Shown piece by piece: positions 1-56,348 of a stretch of DNA of 64,000 nt (positions are counted from its first letter, which is position 1; each line of letters begins with the position of its first letter). The notes beneath the pieces were generated by a model. That model made no database searches. It was given only the letters and a program-made list of their open reading frames with translations, and had not been told where the DNA came from. Origin of the DNA: an uncultured Bacteroidales bacterium (GTDB taxonomy: Bacteria; Bacteroidota; Bacteroidia; Bacteroidales; Muribaculaceae); the NCBI GenBank assembly GCA_902774055.1, contig CACYGX010000012.1, forward strand, positions 1 to 64,000, written 5' to 3'. The position numbers and the translations under genes were made by a program.

Positions 1-48
1 CGTGATTTCGCTTACAATACTTAGCTTTTCTTCAAAACTGTACTTCAT
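1..48 (-). CDS. IS3-family transposase OrfA, N-terminal 16 codons (partial)
   Basis: An ATG on the minus strand at 48-46 opens a frame that runs off the window edge and reads MKYSFEEKLSIVSEIT. This resembles the beginning of the helix-turn-helix OrfA of IS3/IS150 elements, which binds the terminal repeats. The start lies just inside the terminal inverted repeat, as expected. Only 16 codons are visible, so it cannot be judged intact. OrfB with its DDE catalytic domain would lie outside the window. Confidence 0.6.
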   Translation of the reverse strand, partial: MKYSFEEKLSIVSEIT

Positions 49-98
49 AAACAAACTGCACTCCAAAAGTTTTGTGTCTAACTTTTGGGGTGCAGTTC
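1..98 (-). mobile_element. End of an IS3-family insertion sequence (truncated by window edge)
   Basis: The window opens inside an insertion sequence. Bases 54-71 (AACTGCACTCCAAAAGTT) and 80-97 (AACTTTTGGGGTGCAGTT) form an almost perfect inverted repeat around an 8-base loop. Read on the minus strand, the outer arm is followed by a GTTAGACAC-like sequence, as in terminal repeats of the IS150 branch of IS3, and a transposase start codon lies only a few bases further in. The element boundary is inferred at about base 98. The family assignment rests on recalled IR and orfA patterns, not a database search. Confidence 0.7.
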
Positions 99-37779: not shown

Positions 37780-40863
<3,084 letters not shown>

Positions 40864-40891
40864 CGTTCTTTCAACAGGGATTGATATAATA

Positions 40892-40947: not shown

Positions 40948-40960
40948 CGTTAACTGTCAG

Positions 40961-42064: not shown

Positions 42065-42066
42065 AT

Positions 42067-42108
42067 TTGGTTTTTAGTCCTTAGTCCTTAGTCCTTAGTT
42101 TTTAGTTG
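42067..42108. repeat. Heptanucleotide tandem repeat, 6 units
   Basis: TTGGTTT, TTAGTCC three times, TTAGTTT, TTAGTTG, two bases from the CDF start codon. It is the same family as 32195-32271 and (inverted) 257-290. Confidence 0.9.
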
Positions 42109-42112
42109 TGGA

Positions 42113-42145
42113 TTGCGAAAAAAATCGTTGCGAAATTTTTCGCAA
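42113..42145. repeat. 33-bp repeat flanking the AAA ATPase gene (downstream copy)
   Basis: The pattern is TTGCGAA-n6-CG-TTGCGAA-n6-CGCAA. It matches the copy at 43234-43266 except for six positions and contains an 8-bp inverted repeat (TTGCGAAA/TTTCGCAA). It may also act as a terminator. Confidence 0.85.
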
Positions 42146-42161
42146 TGCGTAATTAGTTGTT

Positions 42162-43232: not shown

Positions 43233-43233
43233 G

Positions 43234-43266
43234 TTGCGAATTTTTTCGTTGCGAATTTTTTCGCAA
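43234..43266. repeat. 33-bp repeat flanking the AAA ATPase gene (upstream copy)
   Basis: TTGCGAA-n6-CG-TTGCGAA-n6-CGCAA starts one base upstream of the ATPase ATG (43232), in its 5' leader. Confidence 0.85.
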
Positions 43267-43271
43267 AGATA
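43264..43271 (-). promoter_or_regulatory. -7 box TATCTTTG for the AAA ATPase
   Basis: CAAAGATA on the plus strand, overlapping the end of the 33-bp repeat and 31 bp from the start codon. Confidence 0.7.
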
Positions 43272-43277
43272 GGCAAT

Positions 43278-43330
43278 TTGTTGGTTCTAATCAACAAAAA
43301 ACATCAAAAATTGTTGATTCCAATCAACAA
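43278..43330. promoter_or_regulatory. Two 20-bp palindromes over the ATPase promoter (candidate operators)
   Basis: TTGTTGGTTCTAATCAACAA (43278-43297) and TTGTTGATTCCAATCAACAA (43311-43330) are inverted repeats 33 bp apart centre to centre. The first covers the expected -33 region and the second lies just upstream. This is the usual placement for repressor sites. The regulator is unknown. Confidence 0.65.
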
Positions 43331-43343
43331 TTTTGGTGGGTTT

Positions 43344-43805
43344 TTAACACTTCGATGGGTTTTCTGGAGGTTGCCACAAGAATAGGCCTGCGGCGGATGC
43401 CAGCTGGCGGACCAGGTCGAGCAGGGCGGGGGAGGGGTTGTAAAGGGTCATATAGATGTCGCCGCCTCTAGCGGTAATCAGGGCGTCCTCGGCTTCAATC
43501 AGGGCGTACATGTCGCCATGCCGCAGACTAGAGGTCAGCCACTTTTCCAGCATCCCCGGGTCGGGACTGAGCCATTCGTCACCGCCATCGAGGCTCACGA
43601 GCATGTCGTAGTAGCAGTTCAGCTTCAACAGCACATCGGCAAACTGGTGGCACAACCGTTCGTAGCGCGCCCCCTCCAGATAATACTTCTCCACGGCGAA
43701 GAACTGCCCGCCGCTGTCCTTAGGCACCTGCCTCGGCAAGAAGTCAATCACCCAATACGGCGCTTCGAGCAGCCGTTCCACTATTCCGTCAAAAACTGTT
43801 TCCAT
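43344..43805 (-). CDS. Hypothetical protein
   Basis: The product of about 153 aa starts METVFDGIVERLLEAPYWVIDFLP and continues with QVPKDSGGQFFAVEKYYLEG, a central ALIEAEDALITARGGDIYMTLYNP and a C-terminal LLDLVRQLASAAGLFLWQPPENP. I recognise no named domain. It looks like a small cytosolic alpha/beta protein seen as a conserved hypothetical in Bacteroidales. A TAATTTTG box at 43815-43822 lies 10 bp upstream of ATG 43805, so the longer frame is not used. It faces away from the PASTA gene. Confidence 0.75.
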   Translation of the reverse strand: METVFDGIVERLLEAPYWVIDFLPRQVPKDSGGQFFAVEKYYLEGARYERLCHQFADVLLKLNCYYDMLVSLDGGDEWLSPDPGMLEKWLTSSLRHGDMYALIEAEDALITARGGDIYMTLYNPSPALLDLVRQLASAAGLFLWQPPENPSKC

Positions 43806-43814
43806 ATCTATCCG

Positions 43815-43822
43815 CAAAATTA
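43815..43822 (-). promoter_or_regulatory. -7 box TAATTTTG for the 43344 gene
   Basis: CAAAATTA on the plus strand, 10 bp upstream of ATG 43805. Confidence 0.55.
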
Positions 43823-43884
43823 GCATTTTTTTCAATGTCCGAAAAAAACAAGTCACTGATTCTTGTTTTGCCCTTAATTTTCAT

Positions 43885-43892
43885 TACCTTTG
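43885..43892 (+). promoter_or_regulatory. -7 box TACCTTTG for the PASTA-rluD unit
   Basis: TAnnTTTG match, 27 bp before the GTG start at 43920. Confidence 0.75.
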
Positions 43893-43919
43893 CAGATTGT
43901 AACTAATTATTGAATTACC

Positions 43920-44759
43920 GTGAGCAATAATAACGACAACAATGCAAGCGGATTCGACCGCTTTCGTGATCGCCATCCCATCTTGGTGAACTCTACACTG
44001 ATGGCGTTGGCATTAGTGGCATTGGGCTATATCGCCCTGCTGTTTATTGACGTGTTTACCTCCCATGGCCAGCAGGTGCAGGTGCCCGATGTGCGCAACA
44101 TGCCTCTGGAAAAGGCTATCGACATCCTGGAGGATGCGGGCCTGCGTTGGGAAATCAGTGACTCAAGCACTTTCTATGAGAACTACAAGCCTGGAACGGT
44201 CATTGACCAGGATCCCAAGGCCAAGTCCTATATCAAGAAAATCCGTATCATCTACCTCAACGTGAATGCGATGCATGCACCTATCATCCCGTTCCCCAAG
44301 TTGGTTGACTTGCCTGGACGACAGGGAATGGCGACCCTGAAGGCGATGGGCTTCAAGCATGTGACCATGGATAGCGTTGCCAGCGAGATGGATGGCCTTA
44401 TCCTGCAAGTGTCTGTTGATGGTCACCACGTGACCCCCGGTAATCCCGTGAGTGTGAATGCTCAGATCAAGATCACTGTGGGCGACGGTTCGATTGTGGA
44501 CCTTAATCCCGAACAAATCATCGATCCCGAGTTGATGGACTCTATCGATGAAGCCAATTATCAGGATGCCCAGAAGACCTACGAGGAAGAGATGAAGGCT
44601 GCCCAAGCCCGTGCCGAGCAGGAGCGCAAGGAACAGGCTGCCGAGGAGAATAAGAGCCAAAACAACAGGGACAAAGACAAGGATAAGAAAAAAGAACAAG
44701 ACAAGAAAAAGGATCAAGACAAGAAGTCGGACAAAGATAAGGACAAGAAGAAAAACTAA
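43920..44759 (+). CDS. PASTA-domain membrane protein with Lys/Asp tail
   Basis: The 279-aa protein probably starts at GTG 43920 (SNNNDNNASGFDRFRD). A transmembrane helix (LVNSTLMALALVALGYIALLFIDVF) is followed by two or three PASTA domains (VQVPDVRNMPLEKAIDILEDAGL and FPKLVDLPGRQGMATLKAMG), which in other bacteria bind peptidoglycan stem peptides. No kinase domain is attached, as is common in Bacteroidales. The C-terminal 70 residues are mostly Lys, Asp, Glu and Gln. rluD begins 6 bp after the stop, a pairing often seen in this order. Confidence 0.9.
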   Translation: MSNNNDNNASGFDRFRDRHPILVNSTLMALALVALGYIALLFIDVFTSHGQQVQVPDVRNMPLEKAIDILEDAGLRWEISDSSTFYENYKPGTVIDQDPKAKSYIKKIRIIYLNVNAMHAPIIPFPKLVDLPGRQGMATLKAMGFKHVTMDSVASEMDGLILQVSVDGHHVTPGNPVSVNAQIKITVGDGSIVDLNPEQIIDPELMDSIDEANYQDAQKTYEEEMKAAQARAEQERKEQAAEENKSQNNRDKDKDKKKEQDKKKDQDKKSDKDKDKKKN

Positions 44760-44765
44760 CCCGAC

Positions 44766-45866
44766 ATGGCGCTGGACGACGAGCTGCTCGATGCCGAACT
44801 GGAGGAGGGCGGCCACGAGATTCAATATGACTACAGTGAGCCCGATTTCACCGAGGACGGGCGCGACTACTGGGAGCACTACCACTATGTGGTGGAGCCA
44901 GGACAGGTGTTGCTGCGCATCGACAAGTACCTTGTAGAGCGCATCAAGGGCACCAGCCGTAACCGCGTCCAGAATGCTGCCGAGGCGCAGTGCATTCGCG
45001 TGAACGGGCGCCCCGTCAAGAGCAATTACAGGGTACATCCCGGCGATGTCATCAGCGTGGTGATGGACCGCCCCCGCTATGAGTGCGAAATCGTCGCCCA
45101 GGACATTCCCTTGAACATCGTCTATGAGGACGCCAGCCTGATGGTGGTCAACAAGCCTGCCGGCATGGTGGTGCACCCGGGGCACGGCAACTTTGACGGC
45201 ACGCTGGTCAATGCCCTCGCATGGCACTTCAAGGACAATCCCGACTATGATGTTACCGACCCCCGTCTGGGCCTTGTACACCGCATTGACAAGGACACCA
45301 GCGGCCTGCTCGTTATCGCCAAGACGCCGAATGCCAAAACTTCTCTCGGCGCCCAATTCTTCAAGAAGACTACCAAGCGCCAATACATCGCTGTGGTGTG
45401 GGGCGAGATGAAGCAGGAAGACGGCACCGTGACAGGCAACATCGGACGCGACCCGCGCGACCGCGTGTTGATGAAAGTCTTTCCCGACGGAGACCAGGGT
45501 AAACACGCCGTCACCCACTGGCATACGGTAGAAAACCTCGCCCATGTGGCCGTCGTGCGCTGCCAGCTTGAGACGGGACGTACCCACCAGATACGCGTAC
45601 ACATGAAGCACATCGGTCATCCGTTGTTCAACGATGCCCGATACGGTGGCGACCAGATCCTGCGAGGCAACCGCTCCTCCAGTTACGCCCAATTCATCCA
45701 CAACTGCTTTGAGCTGTGCCCACGTCAAGCCCTGCATGCCAAGACCCTGGGCTTCGTCCACCCCGAGACTGGCGAGCAGATGGACTTCGATAGCGACCTT
45801 CCAGCCGATATGGCCGCCCTTATCACCAAGTGGGAAGACTATGCCCGCAATCTCGCTAATAAATAA
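44766..45866 (+). CDS. rluD: 23S rRNA pseudouridine synthase, RluD type
   Basis: RluD-type enzymes isomerise uridines in helix 69 of 23S rRNA. The 366-aa protein has an N-terminal acidic extension, an S4 RNA-binding domain (LLRIDKYLVERIKGTSRNRVQ near residue 45), and the catalytic GLVHRIDKDTSGLLVIAK with the essential Asp near 178, followed by ETGRTHQIRVHMKHIGHPL. It is in a unit with the upstream PASTA gene and 28 bp before the repeat protein. The assignment to RluD rather than RluC or RluA rests on length and order. Confidence 0.92.
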   Translation: MALDDELLDAELEEGGHEIQYDYSEPDFTEDGRDYWEHYHYVVEPGQVLLRIDKYLVERIKGTSRNRVQNAAEAQCIRVNGRPVKSNYRVHPGDVISVVMDRPRYECEIVAQDIPLNIVYEDASLMVVNKPAGMVVHPGHGNFDGTLVNALAWHFKDNPDYDVTDPRLGLVHRIDKDTSGLLVIAKTPNAKTSLGAQFFKKTTKRQYIAVVWGEMKQEDGTVTGNIGRDPRDRVLMKVFPDGDQGKHAVTHWHTVENLAHVAVVRCQLETGRTHQIRVHMKHIGHPLFNDARYGGDQILRGNRSSSYAQFIHNCFELCPRQALHAKTLGFVHPETGEQMDFDSDLPADMAALITKWEDYARNLANK

Positions 45867-45894
45867 TTGATAAACAGTTAATTATAATAGTATT

Positions 45895-46266
45895 ATGAGA
45901 CGACTGATTACCTGCCTGATGTTATGTGTTGCCCTGTTCTCGATGAGCCAGGTAGCCTATCGCCAGCACAACAAATACACTGATCGTGATGAACTGTTTG
46001 ATCGCAGCGGGACTAAAATAGGCTATGCCGTTTATGACAAATACACCGACCGCACCGAGTATCGCGACCAATACGGTAAAATCGTGAAATATGAGAAGGA
46101 AAACCGTTATATGGATCGGATAGACATCATGGATGAGAGATACAACAACATCGGGTACAAGAAATGGAATAAGTATCAGGAGCGCTGGGAGATCTATGAC
46201 AAATACGGTAAAATGACCATGTATTATACATGGAACCGTTACATGGAGCGTTGGGAATATCATTAA
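45895..46266 (+). CDS. Secreted small protein built of 22-residue aromatic repeats
   Basis: The 123-aa product has a signal peptide (about residues 1-20, LITCLMLCVALFSMSQVAY). It then has four and a half repeats of about 22 residues with the pattern NKYTDRxELxDxxGxxIGYxxY (KYTDRDELFDRSGTKIGY, KYTDRTEYRDQYGKIVKY, RYMDRIDIMDERYNNIGY, KYQERWEIYDKYGKMTMY, then RYMERWEYH). No Cys remains in the mature part. It may fold as a small beta repeat like MORN or YD-type repeats. I do not recognise a named family. A hairpin follows the stop. Confidence 0.8.
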   Translation: MRRLITCLMLCVALFSMSQVAYRQHNKYTDRDELFDRSGTKIGYAVYDKYTDRTEYRDQYGKIVKYEKENRYMDRIDIMDERYNNIGYKKWNKYQERWEIYDKYGKMTMYYTWNRYMERWEYH

Positions 46267-46273
46267 AGAAAAG

Positions 46274-46304
46274 CGGTTGAGTTACCGCAAAGGTGACTCA
46301 ACCG
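46274..46304 (+). terminator. Hairpin after the repeat protein, overlapping array repeat R0
   Basis: A 13-bp stem (46274-46286 with 46292-46304, one G-U) has loop GCAAA. There is no long T run. The right arm and the following bases to about 46319 also resemble, on the minus strand, the first part of the ~110-bp repeat found downstream (R0, partial). Confidence 0.55.
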
Positions 46305-46334
46305 GGCATGCCTTGAAAAGACAGGGGAAATGCG

Positions 46335-46997
46335 TCAACCGAAGCAAGCAAAAACCAAATACATCAACGGCCAGGCTTTCTTTAAATCCCTACCTGTCAA
46401 ATTGTATATCAGGCCAAAGAATATGGCTAAAGCAAAGGCGATGAGTGCTATGTAAACATTACCTTTTGTAATAAAGTGGCCCAGACCCCATGTGAGTCCT
46501 AATACCAGTCCTCCCCAAGGGAACATATTTCGTTTGCCTGAAAAGGCCGTGATTGCCTGTTGAGACAAACTGATGATTAAGCCACTCAATAGCATTTCAA
46601 GAAGGTAATAGACATACTGTAAGGTAAAAAATGTCGAAGATGCAGCTTTGAAAGTCTTCACAAAGCCAGGTCCCCCACTGATAATCGACAATACCACAGC
46701 AAATATCACAGGCAGTGCAACACCAAGAATCAGTTGCCACCGGGAAGGTGTGGAATGTGGCTCAAATACATTGAATGAACAAAGTCTTTTGCTAAACAAG
46801 ATTACTAAAATGGACACTATCAGCCATACTGGAATTATGATTTGCCAATGTTGAATCAGCTGACTAACGCTGAATTGTGCTATATCTATCCCATTGATAT
46901 GCTGCTCTATAAGCATCAATACAAATTCTGCACACAAACCCAGAAAAGCCAATGGAGCTAACAAAATAAAACCTATGTTCTTTTTGAATGACATCAT
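46335..46997 (-). CDS. CPBP-like membrane protein (degenerate)
   Basis: This 220-aa protein has about six membrane helices. Segments YLLEMLLSGLIISLSQQAI and LVLGLTWGLGHF align by eye with motifs 1 and 2 of the CPBP/Abi intramembrane protease family. The first motif lacks the full EExxxR glutamate pair, so catalysis is doubtful. CPBP proteins often accompany bacteriocin immunity or are of unknown function. It is AT-rich, belongs to the minus-strand cassette array and has its own TACCTTTG box. Confidence 0.7.
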   Translation of the reverse strand: MMSFKKNIGFILLAPLAFLGLCAEFVLMLIEQHINGIDIAQFSVSQLIQHWQIIIPVWLIVSILVILFSKRLCSFNVFEPHSTPSRWQLILGVALPVIFAVVLSIISGGPGFVKTFKAASSTFFTLQYVYYLLEMLLSGLIISLSQQAITAFSGKRNMFPWGGLVLGLTWGLGHFITKGNVYIALIAFALAIFFGLIYNLTGRDLKKAWPLMYLVFACFG

Positions 46998-47030
46998 CGT
47001 TTTCTTGCTTTAATTGACATTTAACAGTTA

Positions 47031-47038
47031 CAAAGGTA
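47031..47038 (-). promoter_or_regulatory. -7 box TACCTTTG for the CPBP-like gene
   Basis: CAAAGGTA on the plus strand, 34 bp upstream of the start codon. It sits just downstream (minus strand) of repeat R1. Confidence 0.7.
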
Positions 47039-47049
47039 GGCATTCTTTC

Positions 47050-47165
47050 GCGACCTACGTTTTCTTTTCGTTTGTTTATTGTTCATGAGGCGCGGGTGCT
47101 CGTCCAGCGCTTTTATCATTTTGGTATAAGTACTCCAACCGATTAGACCTAGAAAAGACGCAACG
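47050..47165. repeat. Array repeat R1 (about 110 bp)
   Basis: The plus strand shows TTCATGAGGCGCGGGTGCTCG and TTTTATCATTTTGGTATAAGTA, then ending AGAAAAGACG, as in R2 and R3. It begins about 13 bases after the stop of the deiminase gene on the minus strand. Confidence 0.8.
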
Positions 47166-47177
47166 ATAAATTGGAAT

Positions 47178-48062
47178 TTACAAACTATTCGCCAAAGGGA
47201 CGGATGTGTCTTTTCTTTCTATATACTCCCATGTTACACAATGTAATGCACCTCCTCCATCTTGACCTTTTATGAGAGGTTTTGCATAGATAGGTATTAT
47301 CTTTAAATTAGGAAATAAACGTTCGAAATAATTCAAAGCTGCAATATCATCTTTACTATCATAATTCTCAGAAAGACAAGGAAGCAAAATACCCTCAGGA
47401 ACACGTAAATAATTGAGATAGCACCACGAATCTTTATCGCCATTCCATGCAGGAAGTTCTTCTACTTTAAAATGTGCATCCAAAATTTTCCTTAGTCTTC
47501 TATGAAATGGTTTATCTTGTTCCTTCCAACATCCATTCAATAGTATTTTCCCATCCCCAAGATCTGCAACCATACCGTCAGCATGACCAAATGGGTCTTC
47601 CATATCCCAAGGAAGCAAGATAATATTAGCACAAAGTGCAATTTGCAGATGCTCAATCAATTCGTGAGCTGGCCACTTAGGATTCTCGCTAAATATTTTG
47701 TCAGTCATAATGACCTTAGTTCCACAACGAACATAGTTTCCGCCATCAAGAATAATATTCATGTTCATAGGTGCGTATAAATTGAGTCCTTTACATGCAT
47801 CTTGCTGATTAGTTTTAGAATTACGCCATTTCTTATTTTTATTTTCAACCAAATAATCAGGATTATATTCATATTTTGCATATGTACCATCATCGAGAAT
47901 CATTACTGGCATATAATCGCGACACCAATAATCTTGCGTGTTTTTTAACTCACGGTGTTCAACATGTAGTTTATCGAGAGCAGCAAAGATAGCTTTTGCT
48001 ACGCACTCGGTCTTAGGTTCTTTCCTAAGACGTTCGGACGTGCATATAATAGGTGTTGTCAT
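47178..48062 (-). CDS. Agmatine deiminase/PAD_porph family protein
   Basis: This 294-aa cytosolic protein matches the peptidylarginine deiminase-like fold. It has WCRDYMPV near residue 47, DGGNYVRC near 106, DPFGHADGM (His and Asp of the active site) near 159, and GGGALHCVTW with the nucleophile Cys near 278. Relatives hydrolyse agmatine to N-carbamoylputrescine or deiminate peptidyl arginine. At 294 aa it is shorter than typical agmatine deiminases (about 350). It is AT-rich and lies 16 bp after the glycosylase-like gene, so it is likely transcribed with it. Confidence 0.85.
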   Translation of the reverse strand: MTTPIICTSERLRKEPKTECVAKAIFAALDKLHVEHRELKNTQDYWCRDYMPVMILDDGTYAKYEYNPDYLVENKNKKWRNSKTNQQDACKGLNLYAPMNMNIILDGGNYVRCGTKVIMTDKIFSENPKWPAHELIEHLQIALCANIILLPWDMEDPFGHADGMVADLGDGKILLNGCWKEQDKPFHRRLRKILDAHFKVEELPAWNGDKDSWCYLNYLRVPEGILLPCLSENYDSKDDIAALNYFERLFPNLKIIPIYAKPLIKGQDGGGALHCVTWEYIERKDTSVPLANSL

Positions 48063-48078
48063 TTCTGTGTTTTAGTTG

Positions 48079-48723
48079 TTATACTTGTTCTTTTCTCGTA
48101 AAACTCCATAGTCGTTCGCATTTTTCCCCCTCTATCTTTTCATATACATATTCGCTCTTCGATTTGAATACATTCTTACGATTCCTAATTTCCAGTTCTA
48201 TCTTCTGCATTATAGGGGCATCGACCCATTTTACATCATTGCTTATGCCGAGTGGAAAACCGTTTAACAAATAATAGAGATAAGTGGATTGGGTATTATA
48301 GTCGTAATTTTCAGATTTCATGAACATATCCTTTTTCCATTTCAAATACTTTCCATCCTTATCTTTCACCTCGAATGAACGAATTAGCGCAGAAGATCTA
48401 TATTTTCCAACTTCACTTTCAAAAGTAATATCATAGCCAGAAGTGTGTGCATGTAAAGACATAATTGGGAAGTATGGAACTGTTTCAAGAATATTGCCCT
48501 CCTTGTCTCGTATATTTCGATGATAAACAATAGGGTCATGTATTCCATCTATTTCTTCACTATGAAAGTAAAACTCTACGGTGCGAATATAGATTCTATA
48601 ATCATTTCGCACTTGAATATACCCACCATAAAGAAAACCTTGCGCTAACTCATAAAAAAGAATCTGGAGGTCTTCCTCGTTAGTAGCTCCTTTGAATTTG
48701 AATAATAATTTTTCTAAATACAT
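48079..48723 (-). CDS. Hypothetical protein, possible DNA-glycosylase-like fold
   Basis: The 214-aa protein is not assigned to a family with confidence. The run VRNDYRIYIRTVEFYFHSEE, then YHRNIRDKEGN, PYFPIMSLHAHTSGYDITFES and SSALIRSFEVKDKDG recalls the layout of methylpurine-DNA glycosylase-like proteins (acidic strand, His-rich strand, then an ALIR segment). This is a pattern guess only. It is the first gene of a two-gene cassette with the deiminase, and its own TACCTTTG box lies upstream. Confidence 0.6.
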   Translation of the reverse strand: MYLEKLLFKFKGATNEEDLQILFYELAQGFLYGGYIQVRNDYRIYIRTVEFYFHSEEIDGIHDPIVYHRNIRDKEGNILETVPYFPIMSLHAHTSGYDITFESEVGKYRSSALIRSFEVKDKDGKYLKWKKDMFMKSENYDYNTQSTYLYYLLNGFPLGISNDVKWVDAPIMQKIELEIRNRKNVFKSKSEYVYEKIEGEKCERLWSFTRKEQV

Positions 48724-48756
48724 ACAAATTCCGATTTATCTTTCAGTAAACGCAGA

Positions 48757-48764
48757 CAAAGGTA
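48757..48764 (-). promoter_or_regulatory. -7 box TACCTTTG for the glycosylase-like/deiminase pair
   Basis: CAAAGGTA on the plus strand, 34 bp upstream of the start codon of the 48079 gene. Confidence 0.7.
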
Positions 48765-48784
48765 GCGAATTCATTCCGCTAAGC

Positions 48785-48895
48785 ACTCATTTTCTTTTAG
48801 ATTTCGGTGATTTATTATTCATGAGACGCTGGCGCTCGTCCTGAGTTTTATAATTTTGGAAAAGTTGCTCAACTGATTAGGCCTTAAAAAGACAT
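48785..48895. repeat. Array repeat R2 (about 110 bp)
   Basis: Contains CTCATTTTCTTTTAGATTTC and TTCATGAGACGCTGGCGCTCG, then ATTTTGGAAAAGTTGCTCAACTG and AAAAAGACA. On the minus strand it carries an open stretch ending with Gln-Arg-Leu-Met-Asn-Asn-Lys-Ser-Pro-Lys-Ser-Lys-Arg-Lys-stop. It starts 7 bases after the Fib_succ gene stop. Confidence 0.85.
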
Positions 48896-48901
48896 TGTGC
48901 A

Positions 48902-49627
48902 CTAATTCTGCGGGACACGCACAGCACGGACACTGCAACCGACGGCGCGATCGTAGGGGATGTTCAAGGACATGTCCCCCGAAAAGAAGTACAGGATGTA
49001 AGCGAAGTCGGAGACGATCGGGTAGAGCGTACGTGACCAACAGCAGCCGTGCGAGCCCTCGCATTGGAACGAACGTTCATCTATGACCCAGCCTGCGGCG
49101 GGCAAGAAGATGGTGTTGCCGTTAGGGCCGGTGCCTTGCTGGCCATACACGCCGTTACGGGTCGTCCATTTCCAGGTGCACTGTTCTACCAACTCCCGCT
49201 GCTGCTCATGGGTCGGCATGCGCCACGACGGCCCCCAATTTATGTATGCAGCATCGTCCTCAGGGTCCAACTCCGTCTTGTCATCTGGTGTTACTACTGA
49301 AACGTAATTACCCGAGTCATCGTAATACCCCGACGAGTAACTCTGATTGTATTTCGTATAATACATATCGTCGTGGTTATACCACTTGTAAGTGTTCAAG
49401 TCATAGTTGTCTTTGGGTTTGGTCTCACCCCAGGCGAAGTAGTCGCCGTAGTCCTCGGGAGCGTTCGCCCCCACGTTGCACGTCGCCCACAGCGTGCCGC
49501 TGGGCAGTCCCAGGTCAACCCACTCGTGAGTATCAGGATTCTTGGGTTCGTCATCTTTACATGATGTAAGATATGCCAGTCCTGCAACAAGCGACAATAA
49601 TAAAAAAATTAGCTTAATTGTTTTCAT
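48902..49627 (-). CDS. Fib_succ_major-type lipoprotein
   Basis: The product of about 241 aa has a lipoprotein signal with lipobox YLTSC (Cys 19 or so), a short linker and a Fib_succ_major domain: HEWVDLGLPSGTLWATCNVGA, YGDYFAWGETKPK, a Tyr-rich middle, WGPSWRMPTHEQQRELVEQC, AAGWVIDERSF and CSVRAVR. The family is frequent in Bacteroidales surface proteins. The role is unknown. ATG 49627 is used, with a longer frame starting at 49639 possible. It is GC-richer than the neighbouring cassettes. Confidence 0.88.
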   Translation of the reverse strand: MKTIKLIFLLLSLVAGLAYLTSCKDDEPKNPDTHEWVDLGLPSGTLWATCNVGANAPEDYGDYFAWGETKPKDNYDLNTYKWYNHDDMYYTKYNQSYSSGYYDDSGNYVSVVTPDDKTELDPEDDAAYINWGPSWRMPTHEQQRELVEQCTWKWTTRNGVYGQQGTGPNGNTIFLPAAGWVIDERSFQCEGSHGCCWSRTLYPIVSDFAYILYFFSGDMSLNIPYDRAVGCSVRAVRVPQN

Positions 49628-49699
49628 TGTGTAAATCATTAAATATTAAATTGTGAATTCAAATTAAATGATACCTCGTTTATGTATCATTGTACATTG

Positions 49700-49707
49700 C
49701 AAAGGTA
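49700..49707 (-). promoter_or_regulatory. -7 box TACCTTTG for the Fib_succ gene
   Basis: CAAAGGTA on the plus strand, 73 bp upstream of ATG 49627, next to repeat R3. Confidence 0.65.
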
Positions 49708-49729
49708 GAAAAAATTATTGCGAAATACT

Positions 49730-49847
49730 CATTTTCATCTAGATTTCGGTGATTAATCGTTCATGAGGCGCTGGCACTTGTCCTGTGCTTTATCATTTTG
49801 GTATAAGTATATCAACCGCCTGTGGCTATAAAAGACGTTAGGATTAT
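49730..49847. repeat. Array repeat R3 (about 115 bp)
   Basis: Contains CTCATTTTCATCTAGATTTC and TTCATGAGGCGCTGGCACTT, then ATCATTTTGGTATAAGTATA and ATAAAAGACGTTAGG. It begins about 10 bases after the stop of the gene at 49858. Confidence 0.85.
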
Positions 49848-49857
49848 GCACAAATGA

Positions 49858-50319
49858 TTATAAACTCAATCGATTCTTTAATTGTTCAACAACATTTTCT
49901 GCATTCTCCAAGTCGTTACCCATGGGGACTTCAATAGTTTTAATGTCTTTGTCAGATAAAGTTAAAACCAAATGATACTCTTTATCCATATAAGGAACTT
50001 GTGCATTGTAGAATGATGCATCAGCTATGCAATCTCGCATAATCGATTTACCCTCAACAATTATTACCTCCTCATAGACTAAAACAACAGAATTGAGGTC
50101 GTTGGCTCTTATGCTGCCAAGAACAAGAATTGTTTCGGGTTCACCATGAATTGCAATATAATCATCAACAGTTGTTGCTCGATGAGAGATTTCCTTGTCC
50201 CACTTATCACCTTTAGTTTTGTGGTTTACATATAGTGCAAACAAAACAAGCACAACAATTATAGCCACAAACAAAATGCCTAATGTTTCAGGAGGCACAT
50301 GATTTTGTAGTAAAACCAT
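49858..50319 (-). CDS. Unknown single-pass membrane protein
   Basis: This 153-aa product has an N-terminal membrane helix (LGILFVAIIVVLVLFALYVNH), a KTKGDKWDKEI linker and a cytosolic or periplasmic domain (TTVDDYIAIHGEPETILVLGS...SFYNAQVPYMDKEYHLVLTL...GNDLENAENVVEQLKNRLSL). I do not recognise it. It is AT-rich, and no -7 box was found. It belongs to the repeat-separated array. Confidence 0.7.
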   Translation of the reverse strand: MVLLQNHVPPETLGILFVAIIVVLVLFALYVNHKTKGDKWDKEISHRATTVDDYIAIHGEPETILVLGSIRANDLNSVVLVYEEVIIVEGKSIMRDCIADASFYNAQVPYMDKEYHLVLTLSDKDIKTIEVPMGNDLENAENVVEQLKNRLSL

Positions 50320-50374
50320 ATCGATATAATTAATTTATTAATTCTTATTTAACTATTATTTTCTACTCTCGTTT

Positions 50375-50487
50375 ATTCTTGGGTGATTATTGACTTTGTC
50401 TTCAATGCTCACGCTCGGCAATATTCATGTAAGCATGACATTGCGCTCAATTACTCGCATTGGTGTTCATGAGGCGGTGGGACACAC
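50375..50487. repeat. Array repeat R4 (degenerate, interrupted)
   Basis: TTGGTGTTCATGAGGCGGTGGGAC at its right end and TTCTTGGGTGATTATTGAC at its left end match the two ends of R1-R3, separated by unrelated sequence. Confidence 0.5.
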
Positions 50488-50497
50488 TCCGCGACGA

Positions 50498-50779
50498 TCA
50501 TGCTGTCTCCATTTCGTGGTAAACTTGCAGGATTGGTGCTTGCAGCGATTCCTCTATAGCAACAACAGTGTCAATCGTGAAGTTGTGAGTGCCACGCATC
50601 CACTTACTGATTTCGGCTTCACTCTTACCTAACATCATAGCTAGATCTTTTTGGCGAAGGCCACGAGCGACAAGAATTTCATGTATACGGTCAACTATTT
50701 GGAACGAGAGAGCTACCCGTTCTCTTGTCTCTGGATTAACGTGCTTGCGGCGCTCGTCTATTATTCTACTCCGTTTCAT
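50498..50779 (-). CDS. XRE-family antitoxin (HigA-like)
   Basis: The 93-aa protein has a lambda-repressor-type helix-turn-helix: RGLRQKDLAMMLGKSEAEISKWMRG (recognition helix around SEAEISKW) near residue 40, and a C-terminal helix. It overlaps the preceding toxin gene by 14 bp on the minus strand. The toxin-first order is typical of higBA loci. As a HigA-like protein it would neutralise the toxin and repress the operon by binding palindromes in the promoter (see 51258-51334). Confidence 0.8.
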   Translation of the reverse strand: MKRSRIIDERRKHVNPETRERVALSFQIVDRIHEILVARGLRQKDLAMMLGKSEAEISKWMRGTHNFTIDTVVAIEESLQAPILQVYHEMETA

Positions 50780-51254
50780 CTCTACTAAAGTTTAAATCAC
50801 CTATAATCTCTTTATCCACCAAAACAATTGTGCCGTTCTTAATCCGCGATGAAATGAATCGGCTCGTGTCAATAAGTAGTTTAACGTATGGTGCAAGTTC
50901 CTTGCTTTCTTCCCAAGTGGGGGCATCTTTTACTCCACCGTTGCCAAACACAAGAATCTTGTCAGAAAGTCTCAAGCAGTACAACCGCACTTTGTTGCCT
51001 ACATCTATCGGAATCACACCCACACCATCGCCATAACGACCTTCTGGACGGAAATAACGTTCAAGCGCACCTGACTCGGCTATCTTGTCAAGCCAGGCTA
51101 CGATGACATCAATTTCATCGTCATATTCACACCCTATCGGGAATTTCTCGAAAAACCTTTCTAGTTCAGTCAGTTCCTCATCCTCCAAGCGGATGCTGTA
51201 GAAATTCACATTAGGATATTCTTCAACTAGTTCTATCTGATAAAACTGTTTCAT
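50766..51254 (-). CDS. Putative RelE/HigB-like toxin
   Basis: This protein of 162 aa is the likely toxin of the pair. The segment VGVIPIDVGNKVRLYCLRLSDKILVFGNGGVKD fits the central beta sheet of RelE-like mRNA interferases (as in HigB). The N-terminal half (EEYPNVNFYSIRLEDEELTELERFFEKFP) is longer than in usual RelE. No catalytic residue set can be confirmed by eye. Its position directly upstream of, and overlapping, an XRE antitoxin supports the call. The N-terminal extension may be an extra interaction domain. Confidence 0.65.
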   Translation of the reverse strand: MKQFYQIELVEEYPNVNFYSIRLEDEELTELERFFEKFPIGCEYDDEIDVIVAWLDKIAESGALERYFRPEGRYGDGVGVIPIDVGNKVRLYCLRLSDKILVFGNGGVKDAPTWEESKELAPYVKLLIDTSRFISSRIKNGTIVLVDKEIIGDLNFSRDETE

Positions 51255-51257
51255 TCT

Positions 51258-51334
51258 TAACTTTTAAGTTATCTACGTGCAAAAATAAAGCCAATATCTG
51301 AATATGCCAAATAAATTAACTTAAAAATTAAGTT
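51258..51334 (-). promoter_or_regulatory. Promoter and operator-like palindromes of the toxin-antitoxin operon
   Basis: CAAAAATA at 51280-51287 reads TATTTTTG as a -7 box on the minus strand. TAACTTTTAAGTTA at 51258-51271 lies between it and the start codon, and AACTTAAAAATTAAGTT at 51318-51334 lies about 30 bp upstream. Both share the TAACTT/AAGTTA arms, which suits autorepression by the antitoxin. Confidence 0.65.
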
Positions 51335-51339
51335 TGGTC

Positions 51340-51490
51340 ATTACTTTCTATTCTATTTGGTGATTATTGCTTCCTAAGGCCCTACAATCATGGTAAGGAG
51401 GTGGTCATTGTTCAGAAAATTTCGATGAGTTTAGAAATTTTCAGCACTAATAGATAAATGCTCGCTTTCTTTTGGATTTAAATAGGGGGC
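51340..51490. repeat. Array repeats R5/R6 (degenerate) and surrounding gap
   Basis: ATTTGGTGATTATTGCTTCCTAAGGC near 51355 and CTCGCTTTCTTTTGGATTT near 51470 resemble parts of R2/R3. Otherwise the 451-bp gap between the toxin gene and 51706 holds only the promoters noted. Confidence 0.45.
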
Positions 51491-51629
51491 GAAGGCAGCT
51501 TTGGAATGGATGCACATGGCAGGGGTGTAGGAGGTGCATTGTTGGTGTTAGAGGCCCGTTATTTCATCTTATTTCTTGGGTTTTTTATAAAAATTGTTAG
51601 GAAGAGGTGGATTTCTTTTGGAAAAATGT

Positions 51630-51637
51630 TATCTTTG
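51630..51637 (+). promoter_or_regulatory. -7 box TATCTTTG for the acyltransferase gene
   Basis: TAnnTTTG match. TTTTGG around 51616-51621 is a possible -33. The ATG is 69 bp downstream. Confidence 0.65.
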
Positions 51638-51705
51638 TGGGTTAAAGAAAAAAGAAATTAACCTGAGGGGCGTTGAGACGTCTCCACTAAATCACTCAAA
51701 TCACT

Positions 51706-52887
51706 ATGATAGAGAACGAGAACATACCCATCCCAATTGAGTATCAGGACATTTGCCCGATTCCCGACAAGGACTTCCAGACGGCGATGACTATTTTGGT
51801 GCAAGAGCCAGGTTTCCAGAAGATTGTTGCTTTGGCGTTGCCTAACTACAAGTACTCGGAGTTCAAGCATGTGCTATTAAGCATCAACACCAAGCATGAG
51901 TTCCAAGTGAAGGTGATGAAGCCCTTCATCGAGGGTCTGATGGCCAAAACGGGCACCACCCTCACCACCAGTGGTAACGAGAACCTGGACAAGGAGATGC
52001 CCTACACCTTTGTCACCAATCACCGCGACATCGTCCTTGACTCGGCCCAGTTGAGCTATCTGCTCATCAAGGGCGGACGCGACGCCTGCGAGATCGCTAT
52101 CGGAAACAACTTGCTCATCTATGACTGGATCACCAAGTTGGTGCGTATGAACAAGAGCTTTATCGTGAAGCGCAACCTGGGCCGCATCCAGACGCTGACT
52201 GCTGCTGTGCAATTATCGGGATATATGCACTTTGCCGTTGAGCAGAAGCGGGCCTCGCTGTGGATTGCCCAGCGTGAAGGACGCTGCAAGGACAGTAACG
52301 ACCGCACCCAGGAGAGCCTGATCAAGATGCTGGCCTATGGCAACCGCGACAAGCCCTTTATCGAGAGCCTCAAGGAATTGAACATCGCGCCCATCTCCAT
52401 CAGCTATGAGTATGACCCCAACGACTATCTCAAGGCCAAGGAATTCCTGTGCAAGAGCAAGAACCCCAATTGGCGCAAGGCTCCCGAGGACGACCTCATC
52501 AGCATGAAGACGGGTATCATCGGCCACAAGGGCGAGGTGCATTATGCCTTCACGCCCTGCATCAACGAGGAACTCGATAAGATTCCCGAGGGCTTGGACA
52601 AGTTCCTGGAGGTGGACCGTGTGTGCGCTATCATTGACCATGCCATCCATCAGAACTACAAGATCTTCAAGACCAATTATATCGCCCACGACATCCTGTT
52701 TGATGACAAGCATTTTGCCGACAAATACACCCCCGAGGAGCGCGAAGCATTTGAGCACTATCTCTCGAGCCAGATCGACAAGACCGAGGGCATCAAGTTG
52801 AGCGAGGCCGACCGCTTCTACATGTACAACAAGATGTTGCAGATGTACAGCAACCCGCTCACCAACTACTTGGAGGCAACAAAGTAA
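51706..52887 (+). CDS. Acyltransferase of the PlsC/AGPAT-like family
   Basis: This 393-aa protein has the acyltransferase H-x4-D motif in TNHRDIVLD near residue 105 and downstream conserved parts (RASLWIAQREGRCKDSNDRTQESLI near 185). It has no clear transmembrane segment, so it may act at the membrane surface. Members transfer an acyl chain to glycerol-phosphate or another lipid, and the substrate here is unknown. It is a native GC-rich gene that ends the accessory island. Confidence 0.82.
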   Translation: MIENENIPIPIEYQDICPIPDKDFQTAMTILVQEPGFQKIVALALPNYKYSEFKHVLLSINTKHEFQVKVMKPFIEGLMAKTGTTLTTSGNENLDKEMPYTFVTNHRDIVLDSAQLSYLLIKGGRDACEIAIGNNLLIYDWITKLVRMNKSFIVKRNLGRIQTLTAAVQLSGYMHFAVEQKRASLWIAQREGRCKDSNDRTQESLIKMLAYGNRDKPFIESLKELNIAPISISYEYDPNDYLKAKEFLCKSKNPNWRKAPEDDLISMKTGIIGHKGEVHYAFTPCINEELDKIPEGLDKFLEVDRVCAIIDHAIHQNYKIFKTNYIAHDILFDDKHFADKYTPEEREAFEHYLSSQIDKTEGIKLSEADRFYMYNKMLQMYSNPLTNYLEATK

Positions 52888-52990
52888 GAGACATCAAACC
52901 GGCTTGTTGGTGACGTGAGATCTCGCGTCTCCATGTGAAAAAGTCTAAACCGAGATGCAGCATACATTGTGTCTCTAGAATGAACTCGTA

Positions 52991-54166
52991 ATGAAGATAC
53001 ATTGGTTAGGGCTTATCGTTGTGGCGGTGCTGGGCATCGCCATGGACGTTTATATCTGTAGGCGATTGAAGCGCAACGGCTACCGCTGGGCCATGTTTGT
53101 TAATGCCTTTTGGGCCTTATTGACAGCGGGGCTCGTCATTGCCATCGGCGTGTTGCCCATGTCGAGTGCATCGATGTCCAATAGCTCCTTTGTGGCGGGT
53201 CAGTACATGCTCTACACCTTCTTCTCCATCACGGCGCCCAAGGCGATAGGCCTGTTCTTTTATGGCATCCTGCGGTGGATGAAGCGTCGCTGGGCGGCCC
53301 TGTGTGCCTATATCGTGGCCGCGCTGATTTTCGGCGTGATGTGGTGGGGGGCGATAGTCACTCCAGGCACACTTGACGTGCAGGAGGTCGAACTTGAGTT
53401 TGACCGCTTGCCCGACGCCTTTGACGGCTACCGCATTGTGCAGTGGAGCGATGCCCATCTGGGAACCTATAATGGCCGTACCGCTATTGTCGAACGGCAG
53501 ATTAACGCCATCAATGCGCTGCACCCCGACATAATTTGCTTCACGGGCGACCTCGTGAGCCGCGAGACCAACGAGGCGGAGCCTTACCGCGAGCTCCTGT
53601 CCCGCCTGCATGCTCCCGATGGCGTATTTTCGGTGCTTGGCAATCACGACTACGACAACTATGTGACATGGGTTGACGAGAAGGAAAAGCTCGCCGACCG
53701 TAAGGCCCTGTGCGACCTGCAAAAGGAGGCGGGATGGCGCCTGCTCAACGATGAGTATGCCTTGCTCAAGCGAGGTGATGACCAGATAGTCATCATCGGC
53801 ACCGAGAACTTCGGTGACCGCGTTGGTGAGAAGCGTGGCAACCTGCTGCGGGCCTATCCTGGCTTGAACGACCGCAATTTCAAGATCCTGCTGCAGCACA
53901 ACCCTTATGCCTGGCGTGCCAACACCTTGACCAATAGCAATATCGACCTCATGCTGGCAGGACACACCCATGCCTGGCAGTTCATGCTCAAGTTGGGCAA
54001 GTGGCGCTGGTCACCAGCGAGCATCCACTATCCCGAGTGGGGTGGGGCATACCATGAGGGCGACCGCTGGCTCTATGTCAACATCGGCACGGGCATGGTG
54101 GGACCGCCCATGCGCATCGGTGCCACACCCGAGATTACCGTCATCACCCTCAGGAAGAAAAGATAA
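52991..54166 (+). CDS. Membrane-anchored metallophosphoesterase
   Basis: This 391-aa protein has about four N-terminal membrane helices (residues 1-130, for example LIVVAVLGIAMDVYI and ALCAYIVAALIFGVMWWG). A calcineurin-like phosphoesterase domain follows with SDAHLG near 158, GDLVSR near 190, GNHDYDN near 222, LLQHNP near 300 and AGHTHAW near 325. Such proteins (YkuE/YaeI-like) can hydrolyse UDP-diacylglucosamine or other phosphoesters at the outer face of the membrane. Spacing suggests an independent gene, 44 bp before tex. Confidence 0.88.
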   Translation: MKIHWLGLIVVAVLGIAMDVYICRRLKRNGYRWAMFVNAFWALLTAGLVIAIGVLPMSSASMSNSSFVAGQYMLYTFFSITAPKAIGLFFYGILRWMKRRWAALCAYIVAALIFGVMWWGAIVTPGTLDVQEVELEFDRLPDAFDGYRIVQWSDAHLGTYNGRTAIVERQINAINALHPDIICFTGDLVSRETNEAEPYRELLSRLHAPDGVFSVLGNHDYDNYVTWVDEKEKLADRKALCDLQKEAGWRLLNDEYALLKRGDDQIVIIGTENFGDRVGEKRGNLLRAYPGLNDRNFKILLQHNPYAWRANTLTNSNIDLMLAGHTHAWQFMLKLGKWRWSPASIHYPEWGGAYHEGDRWLYVNIGTGMVGPPMRIGATPEITVITLRKKR

Positions 54167-54209
54167 TCCACCCTCCACAGTAAACCCAGTATATCCAGCA
54201 ATACCAATT

Positions 54210-56348
54210 ATGGCAACTCAAATCTCAACCCTCATCTCCCAGGAGCTCAATATCCCCATCAATCAGGTGGCGGGCACAGTCAATCTGCTTGACGATGGAG
54301 CGACGATTCCTTTCATCAGCCGTTACCGCAAGGAGGTGACAGGCAATCTTGACGACTTTTCCATCCAGTCCATCGACCAGCGGTTGCGTTATTACCGCGA
54401 GCTGGAAAAGCGTCGTGCCACCATCCTCAAGACCATCGAGGCCCAGGACAAACTCACTCCCGAGCTGGCCGACCGCATCAACAACTGCTGGGATGCCAAC
54501 ACGCTCGAGGACATCTATTTGCCCTATAAACCCAAGCGCAAGACCCGCGCCGAGGCCGCACGCCAGCTGGGATTGGAGCCCCTGGCCAAGATCATCATGT
54601 CGCAGCGTGGTGGCAACATTGAGGAACGTGCACGCCAGTATGTTGACGGCGACAAGGTGCCTGACACCGATGCCGCTATTGCTGGCGCTCAAGACATCAT
54701 AGCCGAGTGGGTGAGCGAGAACGAGGCGGTTCGAGCCGCCGTCAGACGAGGTTTCAAGTATGACGCGCGCCTGGTGTCGCATTTTGTCAAGGGTAAAGAG
54801 ATCGAGGGTCGCAATTATGAGAATTACTATGATTTCTCGACGCTGCTCAAGCGCATTTCTTCTCACCAGTTACTGGCAATCCGCCGTGGCGAGAAAGAGG
54901 GCTTCCTCAAGGTGGGCATCGAGATTAACGATGAACGCACGCTGGACAACATCGCTCGCATTGTGGTCAAGGGCAATGGTGAGGCTTCACAGCTTGTCGA
55001 AGAAGCCGCCGAGGACAGTTTCAAGCGCCTGGTCAAGCCCTCTATCGAGACAGAGTTTGCTGCCGCAGCCAAGGAGAAAGCCGACGATGAGGCTATCGAG
55101 ACGTTTGCCCAGAATGTGCGTCAGCTGCTGTTCGCGCCGCCCTTGGGCCGCAAACGTGTGCTGGCCGTTGACCCTGGATTCCGCACGGGGTGCAAGGTGG
55201 TGTGCTTGGACGAACAGGGCAACCTGCTGTATAACGACGTGATTTATCCCACCGCACCCCACAACGACATCGAGGGCGCGACCAAAAAAATCCACACCCT
55301 CACCGAGTCCTATAAGATCGATGCCATCGCTCTGGGTAATGGCACGGCAAGCCGTGAAACGGAGCGCTTCCTGAAACGGATTCGCTATCGCAGGCCCATC
55401 GACGTGTATGTCGTGAGCGAGAATGGCGCCTCGATTTATAGTGCCAGCAAGATTGCCCGCGACGAGTTCCCCGACAAGGATGTGACAGTGCGCGGCGCGG
55501 TCTCTATTGGGCGCCGATTACTCGATCCGCTCGCCGAACTGGTCAAGATTGACCCCAAGTCCATCGGTGTGGGGCAATACCAGCACGATGTGGACCAGAC
55601 GAGGCTCAAAGAGGCGTTAGATTTCACGGTGCAGAGTTGTGTCAACAGCGTGGGTGTAAATGTCAATACGGCCTCCAAGGAGTTGCTTACTTATATCTCT
55701 GGCATGGGACCCACACTGGCCCAGAATATCGTGGACTACCGTGCCGCGAACGGCCATTTCACTTCACGTCAACAGTTGCTCAAAGTGCCCAAGCTGGGGC
55801 CCAAGACGTTTGAGCAGGCGGCGGGCTTCCTGCGTGTCCCCGAGAGCGACAACCCATTGGACAACAGTGCGGTTCACCCCGAGCGCTATGCTCTGGTGGA
55901 GCGAATGGCACGGGATTGCGGATGCGGCATAGCCGACCTGATCAAGGACAAAGCCCAACGCGATAAAATCGATGTTCAGCGCTATATCTCACAAGATGTG
56001 GGAGAACCCACCCTGCGCGATATCATGAGCGAGTTGGAGAAACCGGGACGCGACCCGCGTTCGACGGTGCGGGTTTGGGAATTTGACGAGAATGTGAATG
56101 ACATCAAGGACCTGCGTGAAGGTATGGAACTCAACGGCATTGTCACCAACGTGACACAGTTTGGCGCCTTTGTTGACCTGGGCATCCACAAGGACGGGCT
56201 CGTGCATGTCTCCCAGATGCCCAAGCGTGGCTTGCCGCCCGCCAAGCAGGTTCATGTCAGCCAGCACGTGCGCGTCATCGTCACTGGCATCGACATGGAG
56301 CGTGGCCGTATTGCCCTGTCGATGAAGGGTATCGAGCAACCTAAATAG
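54210..56348 (+). CDS. tex: Tex family RNA-binding protein (transcription accessory)
   Basis: This 712-aa cytosolic protein has the Tex domain order: Tex N-terminal helical domain (start MATQISTLISQELNI), YqgF-like RNase H fold (VLAVDPGFRTGCKVV near residue 315), HhH region (TASKELLTYISGMGPTLAQNIVDYR near 490) and C-terminal S1 domain (GMELNGIVTNVTQFGAFVDLGIHKDGLVHVS near 645). Tex binds nucleic acid and affects transcription or RNA stability. ATG 54210 is preferred because the upstream part of the longer frame (from 53970) overlaps the phosphoesterase and is unlike Tex. Confidence 0.95.
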   Translation: MATQISTLISQELNIPINQVAGTVNLLDDGATIPFISRYRKEVTGNLDDFSIQSIDQRLRYYRELEKRRATILKTIEAQDKLTPELADRINNCWDANTLEDIYLPYKPKRKTRAEAARQLGLEPLAKIIMSQRGGNIEERARQYVDGDKVPDTDAAIAGAQDIIAEWVSENEAVRAAVRRGFKYDARLVSHFVKGKEIEGRNYENYYDFSTLLKRISSHQLLAIRRGEKEGFLKVGIEINDERTLDNIARIVVKGNGEASQLVEEAAEDSFKRLVKPSIETEFAAAAKEKADDEAIETFAQNVRQLLFAPPLGRKRVLAVDPGFRTGCKVVCLDEQGNLLYNDVIYPTAPHNDIEGATKKIHTLTESYKIDAIALGNGTASRETERFLKRIRYRRPIDVYVVSENGASIYSASKIARDEFPDKDVTVRGAVSIGRRLLDPLAELVKIDPKSIGVGQYQHDVDQTRLKEALDFTVQSCVNSVGVNVNTASKELLTYISGMGPTLAQNIVDYRAANGHFTSRQQLLKVPKLGPKTFEQAAGFLRVPESDNPLDNSAVHPERYALVERMARDCGCGIADLIKDKAQRDKIDVQRYISQDVGEPTLRDIMSELEKPGRDPRSTVRVWEFDENVNDIKDLREGMELNGIVTNVTQFGAFVDLGIHKDGLVHVSQMPKRGLPPAKQVHVSQHVRVIVTGIDMERGRIALSMKGIEQPK

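What the first reader, a model, noticed from the sequence alone, without database searches (positions are those of the whole stretch)
46270..51490. Array of minus-strand accessory genes separated by one ~110-bp repeat (cassette-like)
Between rluD and the acyltransferase, seven genes on the minus strand are separated by copies of one repeat: strong copies at 47050-47165, 48785-48895 and 49730-49847, a partial one near 46274-46319, and degenerate ones near 50375-50487 and 51340-51490. In the three strong copies the repeat starts about 7-20 bases after an ORF stop, and a TACCTTTG promoter for the next gene follows. A repeat right after each ORF, uniform orientation, an AT-rich mix of unknowns and a toxin-antitoxin pair are what integron or superintegron cassette arrays look like. 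Classical attC core sites were not found, so a different recombination system or repeated tandem duplication is equally possible.
Basis: partly seen in the sequence, partly recalled or inferred. Interest (0 to 1): 0.8.

Follow-up and report, generated by a model that had tools for sequence, protein, structure and literature searches.

The report
Phage-derived gene cassette array without integrase
Gut bacteria of one Bacteroidales genus carry rows of interchangeable accessory genes joined by a repeat made from the end of a virus tail gene, which looks like a gene-cassette system built from old phage DNA instead of an integron.

Summary
The array is real and behaves like a cassette array, but it is not an integron. 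Each ~140-bp repeat has two halves. Half B is the 3' end of a temperate phage's tape-measure gene, usually with a TAnnTTTG promoter motif; half A is the hairpin-bearing leader of the next phage gene. In prophages these halves flank a "moron" slot: tape measure-B-gene-A-next gene-integrase-tRNA. In the window the phage is gone and five units stand in a row.

Units shuffle. Four of the five window units have close relatives in other species, none found at this site; synonymous divergence is 0.03-0.18 for three of them and 0.25-0.58 for the fourth, against 0.66-1.06 for core genes. Two of four junctions switch from one relative to another inside the repeat. The same chromosomal sites hold different units in different species: of 99 pairs, 1 had identical content and 86 shared nothing.

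Most likely mechanism: phages bring and spread morons, and homologous recombination in the A/B flanks inserts, swaps and loses them. No recombinase near the window and no single crossover point was found. New variant of a known kind (phage morons).

The parts
46251..46323 (-). Terminal half A: GTCTTTTCAAGGC motif plus terminator-like hairpin; 3' end of the array
   Evidence: hairpin -17.6 kcal/mol; aligns at 83% to the leader of the next phage gene, rel -60..8
46335..46997 (-). unit 1: 220-aa membrane-protein-like ORF, no Pfam match
   Evidence: 92% aa in G007 at another site
47031..47168 (-). A.B repeat copy 1 (half B = tape-measure 3' end + TACCTTTG)
47178..48062 (-). unit 2, gene a: agmatine-deiminase-like (PAD_porph, E 4e-22)
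48079..48723 (-). unit 2, gene b: 214 aa, unknown; no repeat between it and gene a
48757..48895 (-). A.B repeat copy 2
48902..49639 (-). unit 3: 245 aa, lipoprotein-like, weak Lcl_C match below Pfam cut-off; its family is the largest unit cluster (10 members)
49700..49844 (-). A.B repeat copy 3; identity switches from one relative to another between 49741 and 49815
49858..50319 (-). unit 4: 153 aa, unknown
   Evidence: 94% aa in G019 at another site
50396..50465 (-). palindromic insert (small dispersed element) interrupting half B of the fourth junction
50458..50487 (-). remnant of half B, fourth junction; switch between relatives at 50475-50500
50498..50779 (-). unit 5, gene b: 93-aa HTH_3 protein (antitoxin-like)
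50766..51254 (-). unit 5, gene a: 162-aa partner, no Pfam match (toxin-like only by arrangement)
44766..45866 (+). left flank: rluD-type pseudouridine synthase, edge of the site
51706..52887 (+). right flank: acyltransferase, edge of the site

Best explanation
The array is a chromosomal row of moron cassettes derived from a temperate phage. In the phage, an accessory gene sits between the tape-measure gene and the next gene. Upstream of it lies half B (the tape-measure 3' end with a promoter motif) and downstream lies half A (a terminator-like hairpin). Shown by sequence: this phage layout; the origin of the repeat halves; prophages and arrays at the same tRNA site in the same orientation; different units at the same site in different species; and switches of identity inside repeats. 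Inferred: successive phages deposit morons at attachment sites, the phage body decays, and homologous recombination in the A and B flanks (array with array, or array with incoming phage) inserts, swaps and deletes single units. Most units carry their own promoter motif, so order need not matter. How the first unit reached sites without a tRNA, such as rluD-acyltransferase, is not known.
For: Half B encodes the tape-measure C-terminus; the tape measure matches PHROG tape-measure families. 14 phage or prophage slots were read, several cut by contig ends: 11 hold one unit, 3 hold several, contents differ almost throughout. Four distant relatives have an empty slot with the two genes overlapping by 4 bp. 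100 of 142 B copies carry TAnnTTTG against a 3.1% background; 72 of 84 lone A copies fold at -10 kcal/mol or below (no shuffled control). Prophages in G002, G009 and G049 and arrays in G032, G037, G044 and G055 share one tRNA-Ser/Arg site in the same orientation. Neighbours of shared units differ on 26 of 34 testable sides. Unit dS against core dS: 0.155 and 0.182 (unit 1), 0.073 (unit 4), 0.25-0.58 (unit 5) against 0.66-1.06. One moron is 99-100% identical in two phage slots and one array. Identity switches from one relative to another inside two of four window junctions and drops on one side in the other two.
Against: The simplest stacking model predicts less decay near the attachment-site end; it was not seen in 28 arrays (rho -0.17, p 0.16; first-last p 0.62). 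No tRNA lies in window 40000-56000, and 25 of 47 loci scanned had none (two of these are phage contigs, many are cut by contig ends). 42 of 142 B copies lack the promoter motif. The HTH gene of unit 5 has dS 0.49-0.58, not far below core; for unit 3 (dS 0.029 with G044) no core gene of that genome was measured. In one search many similarity edges fall outside the repeat. The gene after the slot has no PHROG match; it is called a tail gene by position only. All loci come from draft or metagenome assemblies, and no movement was observed directly.
Confidence: 0.75

Rival explanations
1. Passive graveyard: the array is only a pile of decayed prophage right ends. Units arrive with whole phages, and repeats look alike through common descent rather than through recombination between units.
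For: Tape-measure and next-gene fragments flank many arrays; arrays share a tRNA site with prophages; three phage slots already carry several units.
Against: Identity switches inside two window junctions; 26 of 34 neighbour sides differ; no age gradient; arrays at sites without a tRNA in the stretch read; 29 of 32 unit pairs with dS above 0.05 have dN/dS below 0.5 (the exceptions are 0.71, 1.20 and 1.25, and the window unit-3 pair has 1.05 at dS 0.029), so most genes look kept, not decaying.
Confidence: 0.17
2. Site-specific cassette system (integron or rAID-like): a tyrosine recombinase recognises A.B and inserts circular cassettes.
For: Uniform orientation, repeat after each unit, very mixed cargo, whole-unit differences at the same site.
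Against: No recombinase in the window; similarity edges scattered from model position 8 to 148; several different junction types; the halves are explained as phage coding, promoter and hairpin sequence; the integrase beside C6 is that of the prophage type, and the one beside C27 matches phage integrase families.
Confidence: 0.05
3. Local tandem duplication of one gene plus repeat, followed by divergence.
For: Some joints of next-gene start and tape-measure end (for example L009 9226-9429) look like tandem-duplication joints.
Against: 141 unit ORFs fall into 82 clusters, 52 of them singletons; window units match different species.
Confidence: 0.03

Closest known systems
Phage morons (definition read in PMC4378225, passages only)
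   Different: Here several morons stand in rows, joined by a repeat made of the phage flanks, often outside any recognisable phage, and differ unit by unit between chromosomal sites.
P2/P4 hotspots of antiviral systems (PMC9122126, passages only)
   Same: A fixed place in temperate phages and satellites with swapped cargo; homologous recombination is suggested there too.
   Different: Those hotspots lie directly next to cos; no rows of units with a phage-gene repeat between them appear in the passages read. Cargo here is mixed.
rAID arrays of Bacteroidales (PMC12247911, passages only; the original 2019 paper is recalled, not read)
   Same: Co-oriented short genes in a row with conserved intergenic sequence motifs, in the same bacterial order.
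   Different: rAID is described there with a predicted tyrosine recombinase and orphan immunity genes; the window has no recombinase and cargo is mixed.
Integron or superintegron cassette arrays (recalled)
   Same: Rows of units, each followed by a repeat; whole-unit differences between strains; mixed cargo.
   Different: No integrase near the window, no attC recognised, several chromosomal sites, most units with their own promoter motif.

Membership tests
Phage moron | Inserted between two genes that are adjacent in related phages | tested here: met
   Slot occupied in 14 phages or prophages, empty with 4-bp gene overlap in L069, L240, L241, L242
Phage moron | Own promoter | tested here: inconclusive
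   TAnnTTTG in 100 of 142 B copies vs 3.1% background; that this is the Bacteroidetes -7 box is recalled, activity not tested
Phage moron | Own terminator | tested here: inconclusive
   Hairpin at -10 kcal/mol or below in 72 of 84 lone A copies (no shuffled control); 3 of 10 consensus pairs show double-sided change in 24 sequences. Internal A.B junctions have lost the right arm. Activity not tested
Phage moron | Located in a phage genome | tested here: not met
   True for the slots, not for the window array: none of the ten ORFs of the site scanned in Pfam is a phage gene. The window units look like descendants of morons but are not in a phage
Integron | Adjacent integrase (IntI) | tested here: not met
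   PF00589: 10 matches in the genome at E<=0.001, none on C12
Integron | attC-type recombination site with one crossover point | tested here: not met
   Similarity edges scattered; repeat explained by phage sequence. No attC model was run
rAID | Predicted tyrosine recombinase upstream of the row | tested here: not met
rAID | Orphan immunity genes as cargo | tested here: inconclusive
   Among 83 representatives one SUFU and one CdiI_3 match among the 25 of 82 Pfam families shown
rAID | Conserved intergenic motif of the rAID type | not tested
   The rAID motif was not given in the passages read

The most novel reading that the evidence does not exclude
A phage-powered cassette economy: a bacterial genus keeps banks of promoter-gene-terminator units at several chromosomal sites, and temperate phages with an ever-changing slot pick up, carry and deposit single units by homologous recombination in two short flanks, giving the outcome of a superintegron without any dedicated recombinase.
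Probability: 0.4. Interest if true: 0.8.

Novelty: new variant of a known kind. Interest (0 to 1): 0.62.

Why it matters
Morons are well known, but a paper read here in passages (PMC4378225) calls the mechanism of their acquisition mysterious. This system leaves readable joints: the same two phage-derived flanks around units in phages and in chromosomes. That makes moron acquisition and exchange testable by sequence, and shows how an integron-like gene bank could arise without an integrase.

Tried and rejected
Integron/attC reading: rejected. Known RNA element: the only Rfam match in the window at gathering threshold is a tRNA at 8528. Age gradient from the attachment-site end: tested, not seen. 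A fixed crossover site: not seen; the first rows marked identity 1.0 within the unit-3 family are artefacts of the identity function and were ignored, and many edges lie outside the repeat. Target-site duplication at the empty rluD site: none recognised by eye, flanks too diverged. Clustering of sites by flanks chained 53 of 83 loci through shared phage genes and was replaced by single-gene site lists. The gene981 and EamA lists are two sides of one site (L175 carries both flanks and is in both lists; L123 and L168 in the EamA list are prophages), so the 99 pairs are not independent; L138 and L219, without unit ORFs, were left out of the pairs. In one search, 17 of 135 units without an ORF of 60 aa were dropped, and only loci fetched around hits were used. 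Literature: nothing describing rows of morons or a tape-measure-end repeat in the listings; many subscription papers and bioRxiv are not in that library. Passages of PMC6379469 on grounded prophages were seen and give general background only.
Full report
What is there. The window lies on contig C12 of a 3.17-Mb draft genome. Between an rluD-type gene and an acyltransferase, seven minus-strand ORFs form five units. The repeat between units was confirmed with a profile that contained no window copy: three full copies with E between 1.7e-23 and 1.3e-36, a lone half at the 3' end of the row (E 0.0027), and a weak interrupted copy (E 0.019); 20 shuffled windows gave nothing at E<=10.

What the repeat is. 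The same repeat occurs at two other places of the genome, C6 and C27, again with gene-sized spacing. On C6 it overlaps the 3' end of a phage tape-measure gene. The repeat has two halves. Half B is the tape-measure 3' end, which reads ...QDEYQRLMNNKSPKSKRK and a stop in the phage, followed by TACCTTTG. Half A is the leader of the next gene, with GTCTTTTCAAGGC and a hairpin. That next gene (653 aa) has no PHROG match; calling it a tail gene rests on its position. TAnnTTTG was found at 100 of 142 B copies against 3.1% in random stretches of the same loci; that this is the Bacteroidetes -7 box is recalled. Of 84 lone A copies, 72 fold at -10 kcal/mol or lower (no shuffled control); in an alignment of 24 of them, 3 of 10 consensus pairs show changes on both sides. 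In the window the tape-measure reading frame is intact in copy 2 only; copy 3 has an early stop and copy 1 has lost the stop. So the sequence is kept as DNA rather than as protein.

The phage slot. Fourteen prophages or phage contigs were read at the place after the tape measure, several of them cut by contig ends: 11 hold one unit, 3 hold several (C6, L132, L157), and contents differ almost throughout (shared are one gene of C6 and L132, and a small ORF of L123 and L130). In eight of the 14 (C6, L123, L130, L152, L154, L155, L157, L168) a convergent integrase follows and then a tRNA gene for Gly, Arg or Ser; for the other six the integrase, the tRNA or both lay beyond the contig or were not tested. 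In four distant relatives examined (L069; L240 from the same genome; L241; L242) the two genes overlap by 4 bp and the slot is empty. The slot content is therefore an insertion, as for morons.

From phage to chromosome. DNA matching the repeat was found in 31 of 101 genomes, all of one genus out of 41 (at most 8 candidate places per genome were scored). An exact core pattern met 50 stretches in named records, metagenome bins called Prevotellaceae, Muribaculaceae, Bacteroidales or (one) Porphyromonadaceae, several from goat, sheep, roe deer or water buffalo guts. Some arrays keep a short tape-measure piece upstream and a piece of about 35-100 codons of the next gene downstream (for example L045, L050, L052, L054, L055, L158). 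At one site, behind an ORF that looks like tilS (recalled name) and tRNA-Ser/Arg genes, three genomes (G002, G009, G049) carry the prophage and four (G032, G037, G044, G055) carry an array in the same orientation. Arrays also end 115-290 bp from tRNA-Ser(gct) in three loci and tRNA-His in one (L145, L147, L173, L056). Of 47 loci scanned, 25 had no tRNA, and none lies in window 40000-56000.

Units move one by one. The window's own units match different species: unit 1 with G007 and G019, unit 3 with G044, unit 4 with G019, unit 5 with G025 and G035; unit 2 has no match of 150 bp or more in the loci compared. None of these copies lies beside rluD or the acyltransferase in the loci read; the rluD site of G044 was not located. 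Core genes rluD and acyltransferase differ at dS 0.66-1.06 in six genomes, while unit 1 has 0.155 and 0.182, unit 4 0.073, and the 162-aa gene of unit 5 0.25-0.26; its HTH partner, at 0.49-0.58, is less clear. Unit 3 has 0.029 with G044, for which no core gene was measured. Old relatives exist too: c6_1 at dS 1.2-1.3, other unit-3 relatives at 1.1-2.7. Inside the junction at 49700-49844, identity to the unit-3 relative is 0.92-1.00 up to 49765 and then drops to 0.64, while identity to the unit-4 relative is 0.92-1.00 from 49816 on; at 50475-50500 the unit-4 relative gives way to the unit-5 relative; copies 1 and 2 show one-sided drops near 47126 and 48826. Across the fetched loci, 135 units with 141 ORFs fall into 82 clusters; among 49 pairs at 80% amino-acid identity or more, neighbours are the same on 8 and different on 26 of 34 testable sides. 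One moron is 99-100% identical in two phage slots and one chromosomal array. Of 32 pairs with dS above 0.05, 29 have dN/dS below 0.5.

Same site, different content. One search looked at 23 stretches beside the acyltransferase. Array content: five units in the window; two units in G020; repeats and units in G024 (rluD not on the contig); one gene with a lone A in G006; one gene of the same family in G036, where the profile finds no repeat but a hairpin is visible; a lone A with no unit in G025; a lone A followed by several genes without detectable repeats in G033. No repeat: G002, G003 and G023 with gaps of 392, 181 and 256 bp, and G007, G015, G017, G019, G026, G032 and G035 with gaps of 0.8-7.4 kb filled otherwise. 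In G009, G012, G021, G028, G029 and G034 rluD was not found in the stretch and no repeat was seen. Over the recurrent sites (which adds G060 beside the acyltransferase), 99 pairs of occupied arrays gave 1 identical set, 12 partly shared and 86 with nothing shared; the lists are not independent.

Cargo. Among 83 representatives there are agmatine-deiminase, GDSL lipase, C69 peptidase, SUFU, CdiI_3, DUF4160/DhiT, YhcG nuclease, SusC-like, ATP-grasp and dockerin-like matches, mostly one each (only the first 25 families of each list were shown). This is mixed cargo; whether immunity or anti-phage genes are enriched was not tested.

Mechanism. Homologous recombination over two short phage-derived flanks, with temperate phages as carriers, explains the scattered similarity edges, the loss of phage genes, the free order of units and the sharing between phages and arrays. 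The model of simple stacking of successive prophages predicts a gradient of decay, which was not seen in 28 arrays. No recombinase was found near the window. Direct observation of movement is missing, and the genomes used here are draft or metagenome assemblies.

Noticed in passing
window 50396-50465 (-); 39 further inserts in array loci, 19 model hits in the own genome at E<=0.1: A dispersed 60-75-bp palindromic element sits inside the phage-gene remnants at recurrent positions; 12 of 13 consensus pairs show changes on both sides. It resembles small palindromic elements such as those of Rickettsia and Wolbachia (recalled) and may be a mobile element of this genus.
   Followed up: partly
G000:C7:168099-175876 (L240): The same genome holds a second, 42%-identical relative of the phage genes with an empty slot next to an integrase.
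   Followed up: partly
G000:C4:105344-106760 (L239): A further remnant at the EamA/tilS-like site of the own genome: fragment of the gene after the slot, a weak lone A (E 0.09) and a leucine-rich-repeat ORF.
   Followed up: partly
L071 and L065 (two ends of IMG/VR contig 3300026549_002532): One contig carries an occupied slot at one end and, about 60 kb away beside an integrase, a separate array with tape-measure and next-gene pieces.
   Followed up: partly
window 45895-46266 (+): A short Tyr/Lys-rich ORF with a signal-like start lies between rluD and the array; relatives occupy the same gap in G033, G032, G019 and (as a double copy) G017.
   Followed up: no
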